The translations under genes were made by a program, and so were the position numbers. The notes beneath the pieces were generated by a model. The model ran no database searches. It was not told the DNA's origin and was given only the letters and a program-made list of their open reading frames with translations. From a virus, in IMG/VR virus record IMGVR_UViG_3300032285_004213, positions 1-45,038 of that record: a DNA stretch of 45,038 nt. One strand, written 5' to 3'. This document shows, in pieces, positions 24,152 to 44,605 of this stretch (position 1 is the stretch's first letter; each line of letters opens with the position of its first letter).

Positions 24152-24562
24152 ATGGGAACATTAAGACCATTAGAGCTCGATCCATTTGACTTGCTCTGGA
24201 AAGACCTCTTCGAAACAGCACCACACTTCTCTGCTATTACGCAGAAAATATCACATCCAGTAGACATTTACGAAACAGAAGACGGCATTAAATTTGAAAT
24301 TGCTGCAGTAGGCTTAGACAAAGAAGATATCGACATCTTAGTCGATGGAGATCAGCTTCGTATCAAATACGAAAAAGTAAAGCCAGTAAATCAAGAATCT
24401 GTTATTTATCGCGGAATTAAAAGATCAGGGTTTGATCTAAGTTGGAAAATTTCAGTTAAATTTGAACTTTCTAAATTAGAAGCAAAACTTGATAAAGGAC
24501 TTTTAATTTTAGACATTCCTTATGCGGAATCTAAAAAACCAAAACAAATAGAAATTAAATAA
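24152..24562 (+). CDS. Small heat shock protein (Hsp20/alpha-crystallin)
   Basis: The product has 136 residues. The alpha-crystallin domain runs from about 40 to 130 (HPVDIYETEDGIKFEIAAVG, LDKEDIDILVDGDQLRIKYE, SWKISVKFELSKLEAKLDKG), with the A-x-L-x-x-G-L-L-x-L-type close as KLDKGLLILDIP. The N-terminus is short. It lacks the classical C-terminal I-x-I/V anchor but ends QIEIK, which can serve as one. It holds unfolded proteins in an ATP-independent way. Small heat shock proteins are known from T4-like marine phages. It heads a chaperone block with GroES and GroEL. Confidence 0.85.
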   Translation: MGTLRPLELDPFDLLWKDLFETAPHFSAITQKISHPVDIYETEDGIKFEIAAVGLDKEDIDILVDGDQLRIKYEKVKPVNQESVIYRGIKRSGFDLSWKISVKFELSKLEAKLDKGLLILDIPYAESKKPKQIEIK

Positions 24563-24565
24563 AGT

Positions 24566-24575
24566 AAGGCCTACC
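24566..24575. repeat. Right arm of inverted repeat flanking the small heat shock gene
   Basis: AAGGCCTACC is the exact reverse complement of 24083-24092. It lies just after the heat shock stop and is followed by a partial repeat of CTAC. Confidence 0.55.
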
Positions 24576-24585
24576 TACCTAAGTT

Positions 24586-24774
24586 ATGTTTTCAATCTGC
24601 AAAAATTTTATTAAAGTAAATGATGACTTGTTCCTAGTCAAGCGAGTTCTATTTGAAGATCGAATAAAAGATCTTGAAGGAATTAAGCAGTGGCTTGGAG
24701 TAGACGCAGTCTATAAAAAAGATAACCTACTCTATTTTTGTATTAAAATAGATGAATTAGAAATTGTAAATTAA
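24586..24774 (+). CDS. Small hypothetical protein before groES
   Basis: The product has 62 residues (MFSICKNFIKVNDDLFLVKR at the start and LYFCIKIDELEIVN at the end). It is soluble and likely alpha/beta, with two Cys. No family is recognised. It lies 6 bases before groES and is probably on the same message as the chaperones. Confidence 0.5.
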   Translation: MFSICKNFIKVNDDLFLVKRVLFEDRIKDLEGIKQWLGVDAVYKKDNLLYFCIKIDELEIVN

Positions 24775-24780
24775 CAATAT

Positions 24781-25071
24781 ATGAATAAAATAACCCCACT
24801 AAATGGTTTCATTTTGTTGAAACCCGTAGAAACACAAGAAGAGACATTCGGTAATATCATTATTCCTGATCTAGGCAAAGAAAGACCTGAAATGGGAGAA
24901 GTAGTAGCAACATCAGACATCTACAATTATAACACTGATAAATTTGTAGTATCTACTTTAGAAGTAGGCGAGATTGCACTAATCCCTAAAATGGGATCTC
25001 AAAGAATTGTTCTTGATGGACAAGACTATTTCATTTGTAAAGAATCAGATATTTTAGGAGTTATTGAATAA
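24781..25071 (+). CDS. groS: Co-chaperonin GroES
   Basis: The product has 96 residues, the standard GroES length. It begins ITPLNGFILLKPVE, has the mobile loop ETFGNIIIPD that contacts GroEL, then RPEMGEVVATSD, and ends KESDILGVIE. It forms the heptameric lid of the folding chamber. It lies 14 bases before groEL, as in bacterial operons. The acidic, hydrophobic mobile loop is not unusual. Host origin versus phage lineage cannot be judged by eye. Confidence 0.9.
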   Translation: MNKITPLNGFILLKPVETQEETFGNIIIPDLGKERPEMGEVVATSDIYNYNTDKFVVSTLEVGEIALIPKMGSQRIVLDGQDYFICKESDILGVIE

Positions 25072-25085
25072 AAAAATTAAATAAT

Positions 25086-26702
25086 ATGAGTACAACAAAA
25101 AATGTTTTTGGAACAGAACTTAAAGAAAAGTTATTGTCCGGTATAGAAAAATTAAATGCATCAGTATCATCAACACTAGGTCCAGGAGGGCGTACTGTTT
25201 TGATTCGTGAACAATCTGGCGAAGTTAAAGTTACAAAAGACGGTGTAACAGTTGCAAAAGCTTTTCATAAACTAGAAGATGATATTGAAGATCTTGGTGC
25301 ACAACTTGTAAAGCAAGTAAGTGTAAAATCTGCAAATGAAGCAGGTGATGGTACAACTACATCAACATTAATTGCAACTGAAATTGTAAAAGCCGGATTA
25401 AAAGAAATTCGCCAAGGTTATAATGCTGTTGAGATTAAAAATGAAATTGATAAAATTGTTTTAGAAGTAATTCAAGAAATTAAAGACAAAGCAACTGAAA
25501 TTTCTTCTGAAGAACAAATTAAACAAGTCGCAACTATTTCAGGTAATAATGATCCAGAAGTCGGTAATTTAATTGCTACTGCAATTGAAAAAGTTGGACG
25601 TGAAGGAGTTGTAACTATTGAAGAATCTAAGACTGGTGAAACCTCTCTTGAAGTTGTTGAAGGTATGCAATTTGATCGTGGATATAAATCTCCATACTTT
25701 GTTACTAATAATACAACAATGCAAGCAGGACTTGAAAATCCTTATATCTTATTGTATGATGGACGTATTACAACTGCACAAGAATTACTTCAAGTACTTA
25801 CAAAAGCAAATTCAGAAAATAGATCTCTATTAATTGTTGCAGAAGATATTGGAGACGAAGCACTAGCTACACTTATTGTAAATAAAATGCGTGGTATTAT
25901 TCAAGTATGCGCAGTAAAAGCACCTGATTTTGGTGAAAGAAAAACTTTGATCTTAGAAGATATTGCTATCTTAACTGGAGGACAAGTAATTTCTAAAGAT
26001 AAAGGGCATAAGCTTGATAAATTAACTCCTGCGCAACTTACAGATTTTTTAGGCACTGCTAGAATGTCAACTATTACTAAAGAAGAAACTACTATTGTAG
26101 ATGGTAAAGGGGATGAAGCTAAAATTGAAGCTAGAGCAATTGAGATCAAAGATCAAATTGAAAAAGCTACTTCATTTTATGAGAAAGAAAAACTACAAGA
26201 AAGACTTGGTAAGTTGATTGGCGGTGTTGCAATTATTTCTGTAGGTGGTAATTCTGATATTGAAATTAAAGAAAAGAAAGATAGAGTTGAAGATGCATTA
26301 TTTGCGACTAAAGCAGCACTTGAAGACGGAGTAGTTCCTGGAGGTGGTACTGCATTATATCAATCATCTCTTAATCATAGAGCAGAAACTAGTGTTAATG
26401 TATCAATTGCAAGATCAATTCTAGTAGACGCACTTCAAGCTCCATTTAAGAAAATTCTTGATAATGCAGGAGTAAAAGAATGGTGGACAAAAATTCCTGG
26501 TGAAGGTCAAGTTTATGATGCAAAAAATCATAAAATAGTAGATGCATTTGAAGCAGGTATTATTGATCCAGCAAAAGTGGTTATTACTGCACTAAAAAAC
26601 GCAGCTTCAGTAGCAGGAACAATCCTAACAACTGAAAGTGTTATTTTTGAAAAATTAGGTAAAGATGAGAAACCAGCAGACCCAATGATGGGTATGATGT
26701 AA
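25086..26702 (+). CDS. groL: Chaperonin GroEL
   Basis: The product has 538 residues, close to the bacterial 540-550. Visible signatures are [42 protein letters not shown] (nucleotide-binding and catalytic Asp region), [22 protein letters not shown], and [15 protein letters not shown] near 410. The end has a short DPMMGMM tail in place of the usual GGM repeats. It forms the double-ring folding chamber that works with GroES. A complete, apparently intact chaperonin pair in a phage is uncommon. It may fold the phage's own large virion proteins. A strong terminator follows. Confidence 0.95.
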
Positions 26703-27362: not shown

Positions 27363-27370
27363 ATAATAAA

Positions 27371-27396
27371 GAGCTCTCAATTACGGGGGCTTTTTT
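27371..27396 (+). terminator. Moderate terminator upstream of the three-gene operon
   Basis: AGCTCTC (27372-27378) pairs with GGGGGCT (27385-27391) using two G-T pairs around AATTAC, followed by Ts. Confidence 0.55.
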
Positions 27397-27462: not shown

Positions 27463-28395
27463 ATGAAAGCAGCAATTGTAGGAATGCTAAATAATGTGAG
27501 TAACAGTCAAAATCATCATGGTGGTGGTTATTCACGGATCATGGTTAGTATACTAAAAGAATCCATTCCAGAAGTAGAATTTACAGTTAATCCAGAACCC
27601 GGTACTTGGAATGAATATGACTGCCTCTGCATTTTAGAAGGAGTTAATTATCAAGAAAATACTTTTAATTTTATTGGAGGTCCTCAACCTGAACATACAG
27701 AGAAGCTAAAAGCTATTCTTGATTATAAAGGTACTATTAAATTTATTAATAAGTCATTAGACTTTTCTCAATTCAATAAAAGATTTGGTCTTGAAGGAGA
27801 ATTCCCTACAGGTAAAACTATTGACTTTGCTACAAAGTATGGTGAGAAAACTAAAAAAATAGTAAGAGGAGATTCACACTCACTTAGTGTTTGGAAACCT
27901 GGTTTCGGTATTAACAGAACTGATGGTAAAACTTTGTTTGGATTTTTAAAAGATGCGGATTCTTTAGTTAAAGAGTGGAATGAAAAGTATGATGAAGTAA
28001 TTTTATATTTTGGAAATATTGATCTTCGTTTTCATTTAATGAGGCAAGAAAATCCAAGAGCTGCAACAGGAGATCTATTTAGAAGATATATAGAATTTGC
28101 TAAGAAATTAAATAATGCAACTCTAGTTAATTTGTTACCTGTTGAGCATGAAAGTCGTAAATTACCTGGTACAGGTTTATATCTTAAACAACCATTTTTT
28201 GGAACAAGACAAGAGCGAATGGACTTAAGAGATGCTGCTAATAGAATAATGAATAATTCAGGACTCAATACAATTCAATGGCCTGATGAATGGATCGATG
28301 AAGATGGTACAAAAATGTTTGAGTATATGGAACCTAAACAATCTGTACATTTAAAGCCTAAATATTATAAGTACTTTAACCAATATAATGACTAA
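27463..28395 (+). CDS. SGNH-hydrolase-like protein, first gene of candidate modification operon
   Basis: The product has 310 residues. Motifs fit the SGNH fold: GDSHSLSVW (G136-H139) as the nucleophile block, a YFGNIDLRFHL segment (G184-D187) in place of the usual G-x-N-D or GEIDCR block, and SVHLKPKYY (H296) as the catalytic His block. The usual nucleophile is Ser138. An N-terminal segment (NHHGGGYSRIM) precedes the domain. SGNH enzymes cleave or form esters on many substrates. The substrate is not known. The next gene's ATG overlaps its stop by one base (TAATG), so the two are coupled. Confidence 0.5.
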   Translation: MKAAIVGMLNNVSNSQNHHGGGYSRIMVSILKESIPEVEFTVNPEPGTWNEYDCLCILEGVNYQENTFNFIGGPQPEHTEKLKAILDYKGTIKFINKSLDFSQFNKRFGLEGEFPTGKTIDFATKYGEKTKKIVRGDSHSLSVWKPGFGINRTDGKTLFGFLKDADSLVKEWNEKYDEVILYFGNIDLRFHLMRQENPRAATGDLFRRYIEFAKKLNNATLVNLLPVEHESRKLPGTGLYLKQPFFGTRQERMDLRDAANRIMNNSGLNTIQWPDEWIDEDGTKMFEYMEPKQSVHLKPKYYKYFNQYND

Positions 28396-29438
28396 TGCAA
28401 AAATTTATAATTAATGAAAAACTGTTAGACGCATTAGATGAATATGATAAACGAAGTCTACTAATGCAACAGCATGGTAGTTTAAAACTTCCATATCAAG
28501 GAGATCTATATAAAGATGTAAATGATGATCTAATTTATCATGTACCTATTTATGATACTGCACATCGTAGATTTGCTGCATTCTGTGCATTTACAGAAGC
28601 GGTATGGTATAAAGAGAAAGATCTAAGAGGTATGGGTGCCCACTTTACTCATCATGATATTAAAGACGAGTTTGATTGGTTCATGTTATTTTATCTATTT
28701 AGATTATGTGGATCAGGAATTAATTATGTTCCTAGATATAAAACAGATCATATCAAGGATGTATTAGGAACGCATGGTTTCGGTAATTTTTGGATTGTAG
28801 ATTCTATATTGAAAGAGCGTTACACATGGCCAGAATGGAAGCAGGACCTTTATAATAGGATAACACCATTTACAGATAATAAAGGTTATCTACTTCCTCA
28901 ATTTACATTTGAAGGTGAGACTAGAGGTCACTTGAGAAGATTTATTCTTGATCATGCAGAAGGCTTAGTTAGACACATATATGAAGCTGTTACTACAAAA
29001 AGACTTGACATATATCAAGTAACTGATATAGGTAATGAATATCTAAACAATATTGGATTTAAAAAACAGAATTTTGTTGTAACTGCATTCGCTGCAGATT
29101 TAGGAGAGTATTTCCCTCAATATGTTAATCCTAAAGGTTGGGTATACGCTGGAACAAATGCAGTTCGTTGTATTAAAGCAATATTTCCTAAAGTAAGTCC
29201 TAAAGTAAAAGAGTTCGAGTATATTAATGAAGTGCTACAATTCTTATCAAATAGATATAATTTAAATCCTATTGATTGTGAAGATAGTAGAGCTTGCGAC
29301 GTGGTAAGATATTTTCAAGAATATCAGTCTGAAGATCATATTATTAAAAATAATGGTAGAAGAATGTATAATAATTCTATTCTTAAACAAACGTGGGGTC
29401 ATGATAAATACTATGACTTCGCAACTAAACTAAAATAG
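28395..29438 (+). CDS. Possible amino acid:DNA transferase-like (alpha-glutamyl/putrescinyl thymine pyrophosphorylase-type) protein
   Basis: The product has 347 residues and is largely helical. The segment DWFMLFYLFRLCGSGINY, with G106-N110, and GTHGFGNFWIVDS (H127-W133) resembles a helix-hairpin-helix DNA-glycosylase-like core. Predicted amino acid:DNA transferases of phages that hypermodify thymine have been described as distant relatives of that fold. FRRF-type and Arg-rich helices (GETRGHLRRFILDHAEGL) follow. The assignment leans on context: it is flanked by an SGNH-like gene and a PLP enzyme, and a pyrimidine-modifying enzyme is encoded 3 kb downstream. A plain unknown helical protein is the alternative. 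Confidence 0.4.
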   Translation: MQKFIINEKLLDALDEYDKRSLLMQQHGSLKLPYQGDLYKDVNDDLIYHVPIYDTAHRRFAAFCAFTEAVWYKEKDLRGMGAHFTHHDIKDEFDWFMLFYLFRLCGSGINYVPRYKTDHIKDVLGTHGFGNFWIVDSILKERYTWPEWKQDLYNRITPFTDNKGYLLPQFTFEGETRGHLRRFILDHAEGLVRHIYEAVTTKRLDIYQVTDIGNEYLNNIGFKKQNFVVTAFAADLGEYFPQYVNPKGWVYAGTNAVRCIKAIFPKVSPKVKEFEYINEVLQFLSNRYNLNPIDCEDSRACDVVRYFQEYQSEDHIIKNNGRRMYNNSILKQTWGHDKYYDFATKLK

Positions 29439-29440
29439 TT

Positions 29441-30328
29441 ATGTTTATAAACAAAGCAACAGATCAATCTAATTTAGACATGTCTGACGGTAGGGATTTA
29501 AACTACTATCTTGAAATGACAAAAGACTATAAACATGATTTTGAATTTCAATTAAAACAAGCAGAAGGTTTTACAATAGTCGATGATGGAGAATTTCAAT
29601 ATGGCACTAAAGCTAAAATGGGAGACTTCATGATCAGTCAAGTAAAAGAAGACACTTTAGTTTATGTAGCACCAAGAACAGGTTATGCTCCGTATTCACT
29701 TACATATCTTGCAAAAAAATATAATAAGAAGTTGATCTTATTTATGCCAGCATCTAAAGAAGCATCTGAGCACCAGCTTAGAGTTATTGAAGATGGCGCG
29801 ACTCCTATATTTTTAAAAACACCGGCTATGCCAACTATTAATGGTTGGGCAAAAGATTTTGCAAAACAAATTGGAGCAAAGTATTTACCATTTGGACTTA
29901 AACATGAACAAGTTGTAGCAGGAGGAGTAAGAATATTTCATGACGCATTTAAAGATAAAATAATTCCGAATATGTGGACTGTATTTTCTACAGGAGTTTT
30001 ATCTAGAACATTACAAATTGCTCTACCAAATACAAATTTTAATGCGGTAGCAGTTGCAAGAAACGTACAACCAGGTGAATTAGGTAGAGCCAAATTTTAT
30101 ACTCATCATAAAGATTTTCTAAAAAATGCAGAAATAGAAACTCCATTTGATTGTATTAAAACTTATGATGCAAAAGGTTGGGAATATATGAAAAAATATG
30201 GACACTTAAAAGATTGGTTTTGGAATGTAGCTAGAAATATGCCAAAGCCAACAATTAAACCAAGTGACATTGATTCTCAAAGAGGGTGGGGCGACAAGTC
30301 TGATATTATTAAGTACTTAGGAGAATAG
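29441..30328 (+). CDS. PLP-dependent enzyme, fold type II (ACC deaminase/D-cysteine desulfhydrase-like)
   Basis: The product has 295 residues. YGTKAKMGDF matches the GNKxRKLEF motif of ACC deaminase and D-cysteine desulfhydrase, with Lys57 as the likely Schiff-base Lys. YVAPRTGYAPYSLTYLAKKY resembles the small-domain segment that binds substrate carboxylate. MWTVFSTGVLSRTLQIALP stands in for the Gly-rich phosphate-binding loop. Such enzymes eliminate or replace beta groups of amino acids. A phage copy could prepare or trim an amino-acid-derived group on DNA or a nucleotide. It is shorter than free-living relatives (about 330). It ends the operon. Confidence 0.6.
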   Translation: MFINKATDQSNLDMSDGRDLNYYLEMTKDYKHDFEFQLKQAEGFTIVDDGEFQYGTKAKMGDFMISQVKEDTLVYVAPRTGYAPYSLTYLAKKYNKKLILFMPASKEASEHQLRVIEDGATPIFLKTPAMPTINGWAKDFAKQIGAKYLPFGLKHEQVVAGGVRIFHDAFKDKIIPNMWTVFSTGVLSRTLQIALPNTNFNAVAVARNVQPGELGRAKFYTHHKDFLKNAEIETPFDCIKTYDAKGWEYMKKYGHLKDWFWNVARNMPKPTIKPSDIDSQRGWGDKSDIIKYLGE

Positions 30329-30364: not shown

Positions 30365-30670
30365 ATGAATATATTAGAACAAGCAAATGAGATCATTTAT
30401 AAAAGAAATGAAGAAAAAGCTAGGCAGTATGGACCAATGCAAGAAGGCATGCAAGAAGCGGCTAAGATAGCCTCTCTATTGTCTCACAAAGAAATTACTG
30501 CTGTAGATATGTACAATTGTATGATAGCCTTAAAACTATCTAGACAAGCATATAATCATAAAGAAGACAATTTGCTAGATGCAGTTGCATACATGGCATC
30601 ATTAAACGATTATCAAAATAATTTACAAAATGAAAATTCTAAAGACGAGAGACGTAAAGACACCAAGTAG
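30365..30670 (+). CDS. Small phage protein, DUF6378-like
   Basis: The product has 101 residues. The pattern NILEQANEIIYKRNEEKARQ, then YGPMQEGMQEAAKIAS, VDMYNCMIALKLSRQ and EDNLLDAVAYMASLNDY is that of a small helical phage family (DUF6378). The E-x-x-D-x-x-x-D spacing recalls MazG-type nucleotide pyrophosphatases, but this is only suggestive. It overlaps the dUTPase gene by 41 bases, linking it to nucleotide metabolism. Confidence 0.6.
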   Translation: MNILEQANEIIYKRNEEKARQYGPMQEGMQEAAKIASLLSHKEITAVDMYNCMIALKLSRQAYNHKEDNLLDAVAYMASLNDYQNNLQNENSKDERRKDTK

Positions 30671-31058
30671 AGGAACATCTGAAAGTGCAGGTATAGATTT
30701 TTATGTACCTAATGATTTCGAAGATGTAGTATTACAACCAGGAGAATCAGTATTAATTCCATCAGGAATTAAAGCTCAAATTCCAAGAGGAAATGCCCTA
30801 ATTGCATTCAATAAATCTGGAGTTGCTACTAAACAAGGTCTTATGGTTGGAGCTTGTGTAGTTGATGAAGACTATGAAGGAATTATACATCTTCATATGA
30901 CAAATACATCAAACAAAGAACAGCTTATAAAATCAGGACAGAAATTGGTACAATTTATTTTACTACCAGTAAACTATTCTGAAGTACGGGAAGTACATGA
31001 ATTACAGTCTAGAAATACAGAAAGAGGATCAGGCGGATTTGGATCAACAGGTCTTTAA
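30630..31058 (+). CDS. dut: dUTPase (deoxyuridine triphosphatase)
   Basis: The product has 142 residues. Conserved trimeric dUTPase motifs are clear: SAGIDFYVP (motif 1), FNKSGVATKQGLMVGACVVD (motifs 2 and 3), DEDYEGIIHLHM, QKLVQFILLP (motif 4) and ERGSGGFGSTGL (motif 5, the closing tail). It hydrolyses dUTP to dUMP, keeping uracil out of DNA and supplying dUMP. The start at 30630 gives the normal N-terminal strand (MKILKTRDVKTPSRGTSESA). It overlaps the upstream gene by 41 bases. Confidence 0.92.
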   Translation: MKILKTRDVKTPSRGTSESAGIDFYVPNDFEDVVLQPGESVLIPSGIKAQIPRGNALIAFNKSGVATKQGLMVGACVVDEDYEGIIHLHMTNTSNKEQLIKSGQKLVQFILLPVNYSEVREVHELQSRNTERGSGGFGSTGL

Positions 31059-31288: not shown

Positions 31289-31686
31289 GTAAATTAGATA
31301 AAGTATTTATTAATATAGCAAAGGAAACATCTACTCTGTCACACTGCGTTCGATCTAAGGTCGGCGCAGTTTTAGTTAAAAGTGGAAATATAATTTCCTT
31401 TGGATATAATGGAACTCCAGCAGGAATGGATAATTCTTGTGAAGAAAATGATACTACACTACCACATGTAATCCATGCAGAAGTAAATGCTATTCTTAAA
31501 GCAGCTAAAACAGGTAACTCTATAGATGGATCTACTTTATACTTAACGCTTTCTCCGTGTCTAGACTGCTCTAAACTTATTTTGCAATCAGGAATAAAAA
31601 AAGTTGTATATTTAACTAATTATCGTAATCTTGAAGGAGTACAATTTCTTAAACAATTTATAGAAGTAGAACAATATGGAGAATAA
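31285..31686 (+). CDS. dCMP deaminase
   Basis: The product has 133 residues. The zinc site is complete: HAEVNAI (H64, catalytic E66) and SPCLDC (C92, C95), with the substrate-binding FGYNGTPAGMDN loop. It converts dCMP to dUMP. The start is TTG at 31285, overlapping the previous stop (TGA) by three bases, since no ATG gives the needed N-terminal SKLDKVFINIAKETSTLS segment. It overlaps the next gene by 11 bases. In T4 this enzyme balances dCMP and dUMP. Confidence 0.9.
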   Translation: MSKLDKVFINIAKETSTLSHCVRSKVGAVLVKSGNIISFGYNGTPAGMDNSCEENDTTLPHVIHAEVNAILKAAKTGNSIDGSTLYLTLSPCLDCSKLILQSGIKKVVYLTNYRNLEGVQFLKQFIEVEQYGE

Positions 31687-32320
31687 AATATATAAAACAC
31701 CAACTATAGCATTTGAATATCTTTATCATTATATATTAGGTAAAGGTGAAGACTTTGCAGGTACCAAAGCAATATTCAATTCAGTATTTACTATTCAAGA
31801 TCCAACACAAAAAGTAATAGAAACTCCTAAACGTAAGTTTAATCAAGACTATGCTGACTATGAGTGGGATTGGTATCGTAAAGGTGATAGAGATGCTAGT
31901 GAAATAGCAGAGAAGGCCAAGATATGGAAACAAATGATGGTTCCTTTTACTACAGAAGTAAATTCTAATTATGGATATTTTTGGAATTACAATGATCAGC
32001 TTAAAAGAGTTATTGATGAACTAAAGAGAAATAAAGAAACAAGACGTGCAATTATTGTACATTATCTATTACATGAATTAGATAGATATCAATATGATAC
32101 TCCTTGTAATGATGTACTTAATTTTTATATTAAAGATGATAAATTACAATTGACAGTATTTGCAAGATCTATAGATTTAGTTTACGGATTCTGTAATGAT
32201 CAATATACTTTTGCAAAGCTAATGGAATTAGTATCAGAAAAGACTGGCTATCCTATTGGTGAAATGCATTGGATGATAACTAATCTTCATGTTTACCCAA
32301 GACACTACGATTTATTATGA
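31676..32320 (+). CDS. Thymidylate-synthase-fold enzyme, probable dCMP hydroxymethylase or methylase
   Basis: The product has 214 residues. Counting from the nucleophile C144 gives E. coli thymidylate synthase spacing exactly: R164 and D167 (ARSID, equivalent to R166/D169), G171 (G173), D175 (N177), H205 and Y207 (H207/Y209). The base-selecting Asn177 of thymidylate synthase is therefore Asp175. This is the change found in T4 dCMP hydroxymethylase (D179), and it is known to move thymidylate synthase toward dCMP. The His after the Cys is Asn145. NSNYGYFW matches the conserved LGPVYGxQWR region. The chain stops 7 residues after Y207, so the C-terminal 50 or so residues that close over folate in thymidylate synthase are missing. 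Confidence 0.75.
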   Translation: MENKIYKTPTIAFEYLYHYILGKGEDFAGTKAIFNSVFTIQDPTQKVIETPKRKFNQDYADYEWDWYRKGDRDASEIAEKAKIWKQMMVPFTTEVNSNYGYFWNYNDQLKRVIDELKRNKETRRAIIVHYLLHELDRYQYDTPCNDVLNFYIKDDKLQLTVFARSIDLVYGFCNDQYTFAKLMELVSEKTGYPIGEMHWMITNLHVYPRHYDLL

Positions 32321-34233: not shown

Positions 34234-35103
34234 ATGAAAATGCCTAAGAATATCCTTAATGAATGTGTTATTGCCACTTTACATTTGAATGGAGAAACAT
34301 TCTTAGCAAAGAATAGAGATCGTAAGTACAGCCCAGATATACAGATAATACATGAGATCAGAGGTGGTACTGAGATGGTATACATACATGATAGAATGAC
34401 AGATTGGTCAGAAGGAATGAATGAGTTTGGGATTGGAATTATAAACTCATCTTTGTTAGTTCATTATGATGAAATAGAAGCAGACGTTTTATCTGGTAAA
34501 TTTGACTATGATAAAGAAAAGAAAGGTGTTCAACCTTCTTATGATGGTCTTAAAATACGTAAAGCCTTAGAAAATCATGATTTAGGACCTACTATTAAAT
34601 CAATTATTGAATACACAGGAAAAGATAAGAAAGATGTAGGTGTAAAAGGCATGACTATGGTTTCAAATAATAAACACTCATTCGTTATAGAACTCACATC
34701 AGAACATCTCCCAGTTATTAAAAAAATAGATAAACCAAAAGTTACCGTACGTACTAATCACGGAATATCTTATCCTGATACTGGATATACAGAAGGAGAG
34801 AAAAGAAAGTCTTCCTTGTCTCGTATGAATACAGCAAAAGATGAATTAGAAAAAATATCTGATCCTAAACAAATACTTAATGTATTAGCAAAACAATGGC
34901 ATAAAGATACTTTTCTTAATCCATATAGAAGAGACAACGAATATAATATGCATACTACTGGACAGGTAGTTATGAATTTATCCAATTTAGAATTTACATA
35001 TAGACCTGATTCTCAGCACTCAACTTTCTCTGGATTTATAAATAAACTTCCTAAAAATTATGAGCCTAAAATTAAAGTAGAAATTTTAGAGCCTATATTT
35101 TAA
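34234..35103 (+). CDS. Ntn hydrolase (linear amide hydrolase / acyltransferase-like, C45-C59 type)
   Basis: The product has 289 residues. A 10-residue leader (MKMPKNILNE) precedes Cys11, which begins CVIATLHLNGETFLAKNRDR, the strand pattern of Ntn hydrolases in which the exposed N-terminal Cys is the nucleophile after self-cleavage. MTDWSEGMNEFGIGIINSS, GMTMVSNNKHSFVIELTS and VRTNHG match later strands, including the Asn-His pair region. Relatives cleave linear amides such as penicillin V, bile salt conjugates or N-acyl homoserine lactones. The substrate cannot be read here. It lacks a signal peptide. A terminator follows. Confidence 0.6.
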   Translation: MKMPKNILNECVIATLHLNGETFLAKNRDRKYSPDIQIIHEIRGGTEMVYIHDRMTDWSEGMNEFGIGIINSSLLVHYDEIEADVLSGKFDYDKEKKGVQPSYDGLKIRKALENHDLGPTIKSIIEYTGKDKKDVGVKGMTMVSNNKHSFVIELTSEHLPVIKKIDKPKVTVRTNHGISYPDTGYTEGEKRKSSLSRMNTAKDELEKISDPKQILNVLAKQWHKDTFLNPYRRDNEYNMHTTGQVVMNLSNLEFTYRPDSQHSTFSGFINKLPKNYEPKIKVEILEPIF

Positions 35104-43172: not shown

Positions 43173-43862
43173 ATGGAAACTAAATTAACTATTGTTATTC
43201 CATGTAAAAATGAAGGCGCTGGAATCATTAATGTTTTAGAATTAATTTCAGAGCAAATAAATTGTAGAATAATTATTGCCGATTCATCTGATGATGAATT
43301 ATCGTACCCACTACTTAAAGAGTATAAAAAATCAAAATCAAATATAGAAATAATAGGCGGAGGTCTACCAGCTATAGCTCGTAATAATGGTGCAAAATTA
43401 TGTACAACTCCATATATACTATTTTTAGATGCAGACACATATTTGTACAATGATAATACAATTAATAATTGTTTAGATATTTGTATAAATGGCAATTATG
43501 ATTTAGTCACTTGTAAATTTACTACTGATAAAAAATATAATTGGATTTATAGAATTTTTGATATATTTCAATGGATTAGTTCAAAAACCAAACCTTTTTC
43601 ACTTGGAGGTTTTATGTTATTTAAAACAGAAACTTTTAATAAATTAGGAAGATTCAATGAAGAAGATAAAATTGCAGAAGATTACCACCTTAGTTCCAAA
43701 ATTAAACCTAGTTGTTTTAAAATCACAAACAATTTCGTTTATACTCCAAGTAGAAGATTTCATAAAAAAGGTATATGGTATATGATTAAGTTAGCTTTTA
43801 ATTCTTGGATAAATGTGAATAATGATAATTGGTTTAAAAAAGATTATAACTACTGGAAATGA
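43173..43862 (+). CDS. Glycosyltransferase, family 2
   Basis: The product has 229 residues. The GT-A fold is clear: LTIVIPCKNEGAGIINVLEL at the start, IIIADSSDD, a middle ARNNGAKLCTTPYILFLDAD with the D-x-D metal motif (DADT), and FSLGGFMLFKTETF. It transfers a sugar from a nucleotide sugar. A membrane segment is not visible, so it may act on a soluble or membrane-bound acceptor. It overlaps the next gene by 4 bases (ATGA), coupling it to the LpxH-like enzyme. Confidence 0.85.
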   Translation: METKLTIVIPCKNEGAGIINVLELISEQINCRIIIADSSDDELSYPLLKEYKKSKSNIEIIGGGLPAIARNNGAKLCTTPYILFLDADTYLYNDNTINNCLDICINGNYDLVTCKFTTDKKYNWIYRIFDIFQWISSKTKPFSLGGFMLFKTETFNKLGRFNEEDKIAEDYHLSSKIKPSCFKITNNFVYTPSRRFHKKGIWYMIKLAFNSWINVNNDNWFKKDYNYWK

Positions 43863-44605
43863 AAAATTACAAAGCAATAATTGTGTCAGATTTACATTTA
43901 GGAACTAAAGATTCTAGATGCGAAGAATTTTTACAATTTTTAGATAATCATCCAACAGATTTACTTATTCTTAATGGAGATATAGTAGACGGCTGGGCTT
44001 TAAATAGAGGGAGTAAGTGGAAAAAAGAACATACTAAAGTATTAGGTAAAATAATAAAATTATCAAATAAAATACAAGTAATTTGGATTAGAGGTAACCA
44101 CGATGAATTTATTCAAGAATTTATAGGATCTCATTTTGGTGGTATAGAATTTAGAGAAGATTATAGGATTGAATATGCTGAACATATAGAATATGATAAT
44201 TGGCAAAAAAAATGTTATTATGTTTTTCATGGTGATGTAATAGATATTTTTATAACAAAATATAAATGGCTTTCAAAAATAGGAGCTATAGGATATGATT
44301 TTGCACTATGGTTAAATAGATGGTATAACAAATATAGAAAGTGGAGAAAATTACCGTACCAATCAATATCTAAAAAAATAAAAGATGGTGTTAAAACTGC
44401 TACTATGTATGTTAATGATTTTGAAACTACCGCATTAAAAATGGCAGAAAAGAAAGGTTGCGATGGAGTTATCTGCGGACACATACATCAACCAGAAGAC
44501 AGAACTATAAATGGTAAAAGATATTTAAATTCTGGGGATTGGGTAGAAAACATGAGTGCAATATTAATAGATACTTACGGGAGAGTATATTTATATAAAA
44601 ATTAG
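43859..44605 (+). CDS. Metallophosphoesterase, LpxH-like (UDP-2,3-diacylglucosamine hydrolase type)
   Basis: The product has 248 residues. The five calcineurin-like metal motifs are present: IIVSDLHLGT (D and H), LILNGDIVDGW, IRGNHDEF, FHGDVID and VICGHIHQPE. The spacing and the WLSKIGAIGYDFALWLNRWY helical insert resemble LpxH, which acts in lipid A synthesis. In phage hands it could change lipid A or hydrolyse another sugar-nucleotide phosphate. It is coupled with the glycosyltransferase, so surface modification is likely. Confidence 0.75.
   Translation: MKNYKAIIVSDLHLGTKDSRCEEFLQFLDNHPTDLLILNGDIVDGWALNRGSKWKKEHTKVLGKIIKLSNKIQVIWIRGNHDEFIQEFIGSHFGGIEFREDYRIEYAEHIEYDNWQKKCYYVFHGDVIDIFITKYKWLSKIGAIGYDFALWLNRWYNKYRKWRKLPYQSISKKIKDGVKTATMYVNDFETTALKMAEKKGCDGVICGHIHQPEDRTINGKRYLNSGDWVENMSAILIDTYGRVYLYKN

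What the first reader, a model, noticed from the sequence alone, without database searches (positions are those of the whole stretch)
27463..30328. Three-gene operon that may hypermodify DNA pyrimidines (SGNH-like, amino acid:DNA transferase-like, PLP fold-type II)
Three coupled genes, joined by a 1-base stop/start overlap and a 2-base gap, form one unit between a terminator and a new promoter box. The third has the GNKxRKLEF-like PLP Lys motif (K57). The first has GDSH, GNID and VH motifs of the SGNH fold. The second has a helix-hairpin-helix-like segment (G106-N110, H127-W133) in a mainly helical protein. Phages that put amino-acid-derived groups on thymine are known to use transferases of a glycosylase-like fold together with PLP enzymes. 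Four kb downstream lies a TS-fold enzyme with a dCMP-type active site. The specific combination of these three families is not one I recognise. The link to DNA modification is inference from context.
Basis: partly seen in the sequence, partly recalled or inferred. Interest (0 to 1): 0.75.

Follow-up and report, generated by a model that had tools for sequence, protein, structure and literature searches.

The report
Phage operon likely hypermodifying DNA cytosine
A small set of phage genes that travel together, next to an enzyme of the type that makes hydroxymethyl-cytosine, probably hangs an amino-acid-like group on the cytosines of the phage's own DNA; such modifications are known on thymine but, as far as I could find, not on cytosine.

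Summary
The three genes are real and form a conserved cassette. o3 (29441-30328) is in the same PHROG as the PLP enzyme of phage M6's thymine-hypermodification cluster, with invariant Lys57. o1 (27463-28395) has an SGNH fold with invariant Ser138 and His296. o2 (28395-29438) matches no Pfam or PHROG profile; its AlphaFold model matches viral 'amino acid:DNA transferase' proteins (E 3.5e-9, probability 1.00), but sequence-profile tests were negative or underpowered. Where flanks allow, o1 and o3 flank o2 in 70/73 and 82/83 distinct loci, also in other gene orders further out; o1 and o2 are fused in one lineage. The linked thymidylate-synthase-fold enzyme has the dCMP-type Asp in 91 of 98 scorable sequences, so the likely target is (hydroxymethyl)cytosine, not thymine. 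o1 also pairs, without the PLP gene, with a 5-hmdU-DNA-kinase-like helical domain in other phages (59/60 loci; fused in Aeromonas phage 44RR), beside inositol-phosphate synthase in those examined. Best reading: amino-acid-type hypermodification of 5hmC, a cytosine counterpart of the M6/ViI thymidine pathways with a new SGNH component. The chemistry is untested, and no cultured phage with all three genes was found.

The parts
27368..27395 (+). terminator-like hairpin that ends the upstream unit
   Evidence: 11-pair stem with T-rich tail
27463..28395 (+). o1: SGNH/GDSL-fold protein (S138, N185, H296) with an N-terminal half of its own; shared core gene
   Evidence: AF2 pLDDT 94, Foldseek to GDSL acylhydrolases prob 1.00; phrog_13881/17781; residues
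28395..29438 (+). o2: helical protein with an amino acid:DNA transferase-like fold (no profile match)
   Evidence: conserved triad context; ordered motifs
29441..30328 (+). o3: PLP fold-type II enzyme, Lys57, same PHROG as phage M6 gp052
   Evidence: phrog_7093 E 3.4e-28, M6 gp052 in the same PHROG at 530 bits; alignment A6
30365..30670 (+). DUF6378 protein; a similar gene precedes o1 in the sister cassettes L220 and L239
   Evidence: Pfam; reading
30630..31058 (+). dUTPase-like (nucleotide pool)
   Evidence: sequence reading; a similar gene precedes o1 in L220
31285..31686 (+). dCMP deaminase-like (nucleotide pool)
   Evidence: sequence reading
31676..32320 (+). TS-fold enzyme of dCMP hydroxymethylase type
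   Evidence: Pfam Thymidylat_synt 4e-25; best PDB match T4 dCMP hydroxymethylase 1b49, 3.4e-17, Asp aligned to the dCMP-specificity Asp; Asp in 91 distinct sequences of o1+o3 loci

Best explanation
o1-o2-o3 together with the nearby dCMP-type TS-fold enzyme form a phage pathway that hypermodifies cytosine in its own DNA. Proposed route: the TS-fold enzyme makes 5-hydroxymethyl-dCMP, which is polymerised into DNA (inferred from the active-site Asp). o2, of amino acid:DNA transferase-like fold, then joins an amino acid or similar amine to the 5-hydroxymethyl carbon (inferred from fold, fusion and context). o3, a PLP enzyme related to M6 gp052, reshapes the attached amino acid, most likely by decarboxylation (inferred from homology). 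o1, an SGNH protein, does a step common to this and to an alternative PLP-free cassette: activating or de-blocking the 5-hydroxymethyl group, or adding or removing an acyl group (weakest step). Purpose: evasion of host nucleases (inferred). Shown here: gene linkage, families, key residues, fold predictions. Not shown: any reaction or product.
For: o3 is in the same PHROG as M6 gp052, the PALP gene beside the M6 ADDT gene gp051 and a radical-SAM-like gene, with a shared C-terminal PPF..YDxKxW..FWN motif. The o2 model hits 'Amino acid:DNA transferase domain-containing' viral proteins at E 3.5e-9, prob 1.00, and E 0.02, prob 1.00. Among 89 distinct o2 sequences, o1 lies upstream in 70/73, o3 downstream in 82/83 and the TS-fold gene downstream in 45/50 loci with enough flank. 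The set is kept in other gene orders: L344 TS-o2-o2b-o3-o1; L337 and L338 TS-o2-o3-o1; L342 o1-o2-o3-TS. o1 and o2 are fused in L333, as o1 is fused to a HMUDK_hel-related domain in 44RR. The TS-fold enzyme has the dCMP-type Asp in 91 distinct sequences; that residue marks contigs with modified cytosine experimentally (PMC8670742). A 174-kb relative without o2 in the cassette has a distant o2 plus o2b elsewhere.
Against: No ADDT match for o2 or about 25 relatives, and HMUDK_hel only below threshold in one, L319 (E 0.029). hhalign of o2 against ADDT, HMUDK and RRC profiles is at noise level. The o2 model (pLDDT 69) found no solved ADDT in the PDB, although glycinyltransferases 8z2m/8z2n are deposited. 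No 5hmC-DNA kinase was recognised, and T4 gp1 has no match in the window-type contigs. The TS-fold gene is also simply next to other nucleotide genes. Seven other contigs (39-65 kb fragments) whose cassette lacks o2 gave no o2 elsewhere.
Confidence: 0.62

Rival explanations
1. The cassette hypermodifies thymine (5hmdU), as in M6, ViI and phiW-14, and the dCMP-type enzyme is an unrelated neighbour.
For: The only related characterised PLP/transferase systems known to me act on 5hmdU; M6 gp052 is the nearest relative of o3 in a characterised cluster.
Against: M6-type loci carry a TS-fold enzyme with a different motif (RSNDLIWGAYGANA type, 25 of 25), whereas o1+o3 loci have the Asp type (91 of 98); the 7 Asn types look like canonical thymidylate synthases, mostly a second gene well downstream. 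In distant lineages with other gene orders the Asp-type gene directly adjoins the set (L344, L338). No ADDT or HMUDK_hel match over cut-off in the window or the large related contigs.
Confidence: 0.12
2. The TS-fold enzyme makes 5-methyl-dCMP rather than 5-hydroxymethyl-dCMP, and the cassette acts on 5-methylcytosine or on another base.
For: [quoted passage not shown]
Against: The best structural match is T4 dCMP hydroxymethylase, though only just ahead of a true TS (3.4e-17 against 1.1e-15). An ADDT-like substitution would need an oxygenated carbon (known chemistry of the thymidine pathways).
Confidence: 0.08
3. o1 and o3 make or recycle a small molecule (cofactor, amino acid derivative, inhibitor) used during infection, not a DNA base.
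For: SGNH proteins and PLP fold-II enzymes mostly act on free metabolites (general knowledge); o3 has diverged to 39% identity in some loci (L148).
Against: Tight linkage to an ADDT-fold protein and to a dCMP-type enzyme. In Erythrobacter phage ZS04 a related PLP domain sits inside a ParB-DNA methyltransferase polypeptide. o1 is fused to a HMUDK_hel-related domain in 44RR.
Confidence: 0.13
4. Sugar- or inositol-type modification of 5hmC: o2 is a cousin of the HMUDK_hel-type protein that transfers an inositol-like group, and o3 tailors an aminated sugar.
For: o1's other partner cassette has myo-inositol-1-phosphate synthase and FkbM methyltransferases.
Against: Those phage records lack o3 (0 of 9 apart from one weak partial hit, E 1e-5), and no inositol synthase was seen between o1 and the TS-fold gene in the window.
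Confidence: 0.05

Closest known systems
Phage M6 (Yuavirus) 5-(2-aminoethyl)deoxyuridine pathway: gp051 ADDT, gp052 PLP, gp053 radical SAM, gp055 HMUDK_hel
   Same: PLP enzyme of the same PHROG; a helical DNA transferase-like protein beside it; a TS-fold enzyme for the pyrimidine
   Different: dCMP-type TS-fold enzyme instead of the M6 type; SGNH protein instead of radical SAM in the cassette; o2 is not matched by the ADDT Pfam model
T4-type 5hmC pathway (dCMP hydroxymethylase plus glucosyl- or arabinosyltransferase)
   Same: dCMP hydroxymethylase-type enzyme
   Different: decoration by ADDT-like, PLP and SGNH proteins; no match to the T4 gp1 hmdCMP kinase in related contigs
5-carbamoyloxymethylcytosine phages (MetaGPA, PMC8670742)
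   Same: further decoration of 5hmC next to a dCMP-type TS-fold enzyme in environmental phages
   Different: a carbamoyltransferase there; the terms PALP, SGNH, ADDT and HMUDK do not occur in that paper's main text
o1 + HMUDK_hel-type cassettes (44RR type and large phages, found here)
   Same: o1 homologue, dCMP-type TS-fold enzyme, fused or nearby helical protein
   Different: HMUDK_hel-type protein instead of o2; no PLP enzyme; inositol/methylation genes in L239 and L220; no published description found

Membership tests
Amino acid:DNA transferase (ADDT, PF18724) - o2 | match to the family profile | tested here: not met
   no Pfam ADDT hit for o2 or its relatives even at E<=10
Amino acid:DNA transferase (ADDT, PF18724) - o2 | ADDT-type fold | tested here: inconclusive
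   BFVD ADDT-domain proteins E 3.5e-9 and 0.02, prob 1.00; solved glycinyltransferase not found; model pLDDT 69
Amino acid:DNA transferase (ADDT, PF18724) - o2 | transfer of an amino acid to an activated 5-hydroxymethylpyrimidine in DNA | not testable with these tools
   needs an enzyme assay
HMUDK_hel (PF18723) - o2 | profile match over cut-off | tested here: not met
   best is E 0.029, 14.2 bits against 25, in L319; RRC proteins of L239, L227 and L341 are over the cut-off
phrog_7093 / M6 gp052 PLP family - o3 | profile match, PLP Lys, C-terminal PPF..YDxKxW..FWN motif | tested here: met
phrog_7093 / M6 gp052 PLP family - o3 | activity of the M6 enzyme (amino-acid tailoring on DNA) | not testable with these tools
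   function of M6 gp052 recalled from the literature; the paper was not held
PALP (PF00291) - o3 | profile over cut-off | tested here: inconclusive
   window o3 itself no hit; relatives ZS04 40.1, Mae-JY30 46.3 and M6 39.5 bits against 35
SGNH/GDSL hydrolase - o1 | fold with Ser (block I), Asn (block III), His (block V) | tested here: met
SGNH/GDSL hydrolase - o1 | block V Asp three residues before His | tested here: not met
   position 293 is mostly Q or K
dCMP hydroxymethylase (T4 gp42 type) - 31676-32320 | TS fold with Asp at the dCMP-specificity position | tested here: met
dCMP hydroxymethylase (T4 gp42 type) - 31676-32320 | hydroxymethyl rather than methyl product | not testable with these tools
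   the T4 enzyme is only slightly the best match

The most novel reading that the evidence does not exclude
A widespread family of phages builds an amino-acid-derived hypermodified cytosine: 5hmC in DNA is substituted by an ADDT-superfamily transferase too diverged for existing profiles, trimmed by an M6-type PLP enzyme, and handled by a new SGNH-fold DNA-modification enzyme that is also shared with a second, inositol-linked 5hmC pathway in relatives of Aeromonas phage 44RR.
Probability: 0.45. Interest if true: 0.85.

Novelty: new variant of a known kind. Interest (0 to 1): 0.7.

Why it matters
Known amino-acid-based DNA hypermodifications are all on thymine, to my knowledge. This would carry that chemistry to cytosine, add an enzyme class (SGNH) with no role in DNA modification known to me, and give testable enzymes for DNA chemistry and for studying evasion of nucleases. 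The o1-plus-HMUDK_hel arrangement is present in cultured phages (44RR, 31, AS4), so part of it can be tested now by nucleoside mass spectrometry.

Tried and rejected
Profile-profile alignment of o2 with ADDT, HMUDK_hel and RRC families: noise, but HMUDK against ADDT failed too, so the test lacks power; an early global-mode run was discarded. The hhalign value of o3 against M6 PLP is not used as evidence because the iterated alignments share members; the PHROG match is used instead. 'o1-o3 is the core and o2 is optional' was revised: G003 carries o2 and o2b elsewhere. o2 in cultured phages: none. T4 hmdCMP kinase gp1 in the contigs: none except 44RR. ADDT or HMUDK_hel in the window's relatives: none over cut-off. 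The ordered three-motif pattern was written after looking at the families and misses o2b and ADDT, so it is descriptive only. Promoter claim not above chance. Key papers on thymidine hypermodification and the 2013 base-modification survey were not held.

Full report
OBSERVATION. The three ORFs lie exactly where stated and are translationally coupled (1-base overlap, 2-base gap). A terminator-like hairpin precedes them at 27368-27395, but promoter-like sites are no more frequent than in shuffles. The thymidylate-synthase-fold gene begins 1.35 kb after o3, not 4 kb. The window is a 45-kb virus record.

o3, THE PLP GENE. Window o3 has no Pfam hit but matches phrog_7093 'threonine dehydratase' at 3.4e-28. 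Pseudomonas phage M6 gp052 belongs to the same PHROG (530 bits). It lies between gp051, which is Pfam ADDT (E 1.4e-46), and a radical-SAM-like gene, in the cluster linked to 5-(2-aminoethyl)deoxyuridine; that link and the decarboxylase role of a PLP enzyme in it are from my knowledge of the literature, the papers not being held. K57 is conserved in 45/45 aligned homologues; the S-T-G phosphate loop and C-terminal Y242, D243, K245, N262 in nearly all or all. Relatives over the PALP cut-off occur in Microcystis phage Mae-JY30, beside ParB and methylase genes, and in Erythrobacter phage ZS04, where the PLP domain is embedded in a ParB-DNA methyltransferase polypeptide.

o1, THE SGNH GENE. AlphaFold2 gives pLDDT 94 and pTM 0.91. 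Foldseek finds GDSL/SGNH acylhydrolases and an acyltransferase at probability 1.00. S138 (81/81), H296 (79/79) and N185 (79/81) fit SGNH blocks I, V and III; the usual Asp of block V is missing, while H139, D187, R189, H191, R194 and E228 are invariant. This is either an unusual hydrolase/acyltransferase or a re-purposed fold. Homologues occur in Aeromonas T4-like phages and Tenacibaculum phage PTm1, in 474 IMG/VR stretches, and in only 8 MAG contigs among 84,980 bacterial and archaeal genomes.

o2, THE MIDDLE GENE. No profile recognises it. The AF2 model (pLDDT 69, pTM 0.73, shallow alignment) hits viral proteins named 'Amino acid:DNA transferase domain-containing' at E 3.5e-9 and 0.02, both probability 1.00, and a 39%-identical unnamed relative. 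It did not hit any solved structure convincingly, although a glycinyltransferase is deposited (8z2m). Sequence profile comparison was negative, but it also failed between HMUDK_hel and ADDT, so it cannot decide. Motifs G.G[NPQ][FYW], [AG]G[PTV][GN][AH] and [ED]xxxC occur in this order in 73/87 o2, 16/23 HMUDK and 13/51 RRC proteins and in 0/658 other ORFs of at least 250 aa. The pattern was chosen after seeing the families.

LINKAGE. Of 89 distinct o2 sequences, o1 lies upstream in 70 of 73 and o3 downstream in 82 of 83 loci with enough flanking DNA; the TS-fold gene follows in 45 of 50. Relatives at 48-69% identity keep o1-o2-o3, with TS after it wherever the contig reaches, and in L333 o1 and o2 are one ORF. 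Much more distant sets on MAG contigs keep the same genes in other orders: L344 TS-o2-o2b-o3-o1 packed in 4.5 kb, L337 and L338 TS-o2-o3-o1, L342 o1-o2-o3-TS. In 59 of the first 149 o1+o3 loci (overlapping fetches included) no o2 was detected, with o1 ending about 7 bases before o3 in many. A 174-kb contig of that type (G003) nevertheless carries a distant o2 and the paralogue o2b elsewhere. Hence o2 is probably part of the system in general, though this was shown for one genome only.

THE BASE. 31676-32320 aligns best with T4 dCMP hydroxymethylase (1b49, 3.4e-17), its Asp falling on the residue that sets dCMP specificity (RSIDLVYGFCND against RSNDVVFGFRND). Among distinct TS-fold sequences in o1+o3 loci 91 have Asp, 7 have Asn and look like canonical thymidylate synthases (such as RSVDTFLGLPFN), and 4 could not be scored; M6-type loci have a third motif. 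In a metagenomic genome-phenome study this Asp marks contigs with modified cytosine (PMC8670742). So cytosine is the likelier target. Whether the product is 5-hydroxymethyl- or 5-methyl-dCMP is untested.

A SISTER CASSETTE. The 795-aa protein of Aeromonas phage 44RR fuses o1 to a domain related to HMUDK_hel (called RRC here; sub-threshold in 44RR, over cut-off in relatives L239, L227 and L341). Of 60 loci with that domain, 59 have o1, and many have a dCMP-type TS-fold gene. L239 and L220 also encode myo-inositol-1-phosphate synthase (profile match in L239, similar reading in L220), FkbM methyltransferases and, in L239, a protein weakly like polynucleotide kinase. o3 is absent from nine such phage records apart from one weak hit. 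The logic is therefore: o1 plus the dCMP-type enzyme is common; o2+o3 or HMUDK_hel+inositol genes would give different decorations.

MECHANISM. Proposed: dCMP -> 5hm-dCMP -> 5hmC in DNA -> (o1/o2) amino acid or amine attached to the methylene -> (o3) PLP-dependent tailoring. In the thymidine systems 5hmdU is first phosphorylated by a DNA kinase and then substituted (PMC6449724). No kinase was recognised here, so o1 or o2 may supply activation. This is the weakest step.

NOVELTY. I found no report of amino-acid-type hypermodified cytosine in the held library, which is a limited search. The parts resemble known kinds; the combination, the base and the SGNH member are new to me. Hence 'new variant of a known kind', interest 0.7.

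Noticed in passing
L239 (950-6197), L220 (1650-6584): Large phages carry o1, inositol-1-phosphate synthase, FkbM methyltransferases and a HMUDK_hel protein as one block: a candidate inositol-based 5hmC modification.
   Followed up: partly
L050:2326-4764 (Erythrobacter phage ZS04): One polypeptide joins a ParB-like N-terminus, a DNA methyltransferase and a PLP fold-II domain inserted between methyltransferase motifs; in Microcystis phage Mae-JY30 the same parts are separate genes.
   Followed up: partly
L001:9054-9737, L096:2754-3443, L148:8954-9649: A conserved ~228-aa lipoprotein-like gene (signal peptide with Cys) is inserted between o2 and o3, or o1 and o3, in many relatives; absent from the window.
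   Followed up: no
L012:7294-7974, L089:4344-5027, L103:5939-6661, L006:732-1472: Homing-endonuclease-like genes sit in the gaps of the cassette in several relatives.
   Followed up: no
L344:2103-3074, L338:6142-7125, L324:2485-3462, L416, L417: o2b, a second helical paralogue of o2, lies between o2 and o3, or elsewhere in the genome (next to a distant o2 in G003).
   Followed up: partly
L414:2455-3300 (-): Next to the distant o2 of contig G003 lies a gene that reads like a HhH-GPD (MBD4-like) DNA glycosylase.
   Followed up: no
window 24152-26702: Hsp20-, GroES- and GroEL-like genes encoded in a row by the phage.
   Followed up: no
window 34234-35103: Weak match to acyl-CoA:6-APA acyltransferase (NTN hydrolase; E 0.009, below cut-off) in the same gene block.
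   Followed up: no
window 43173-44605: Family 2 glycosyltransferase followed by a calcineurin-like phosphoesterase.
   Followed up: no
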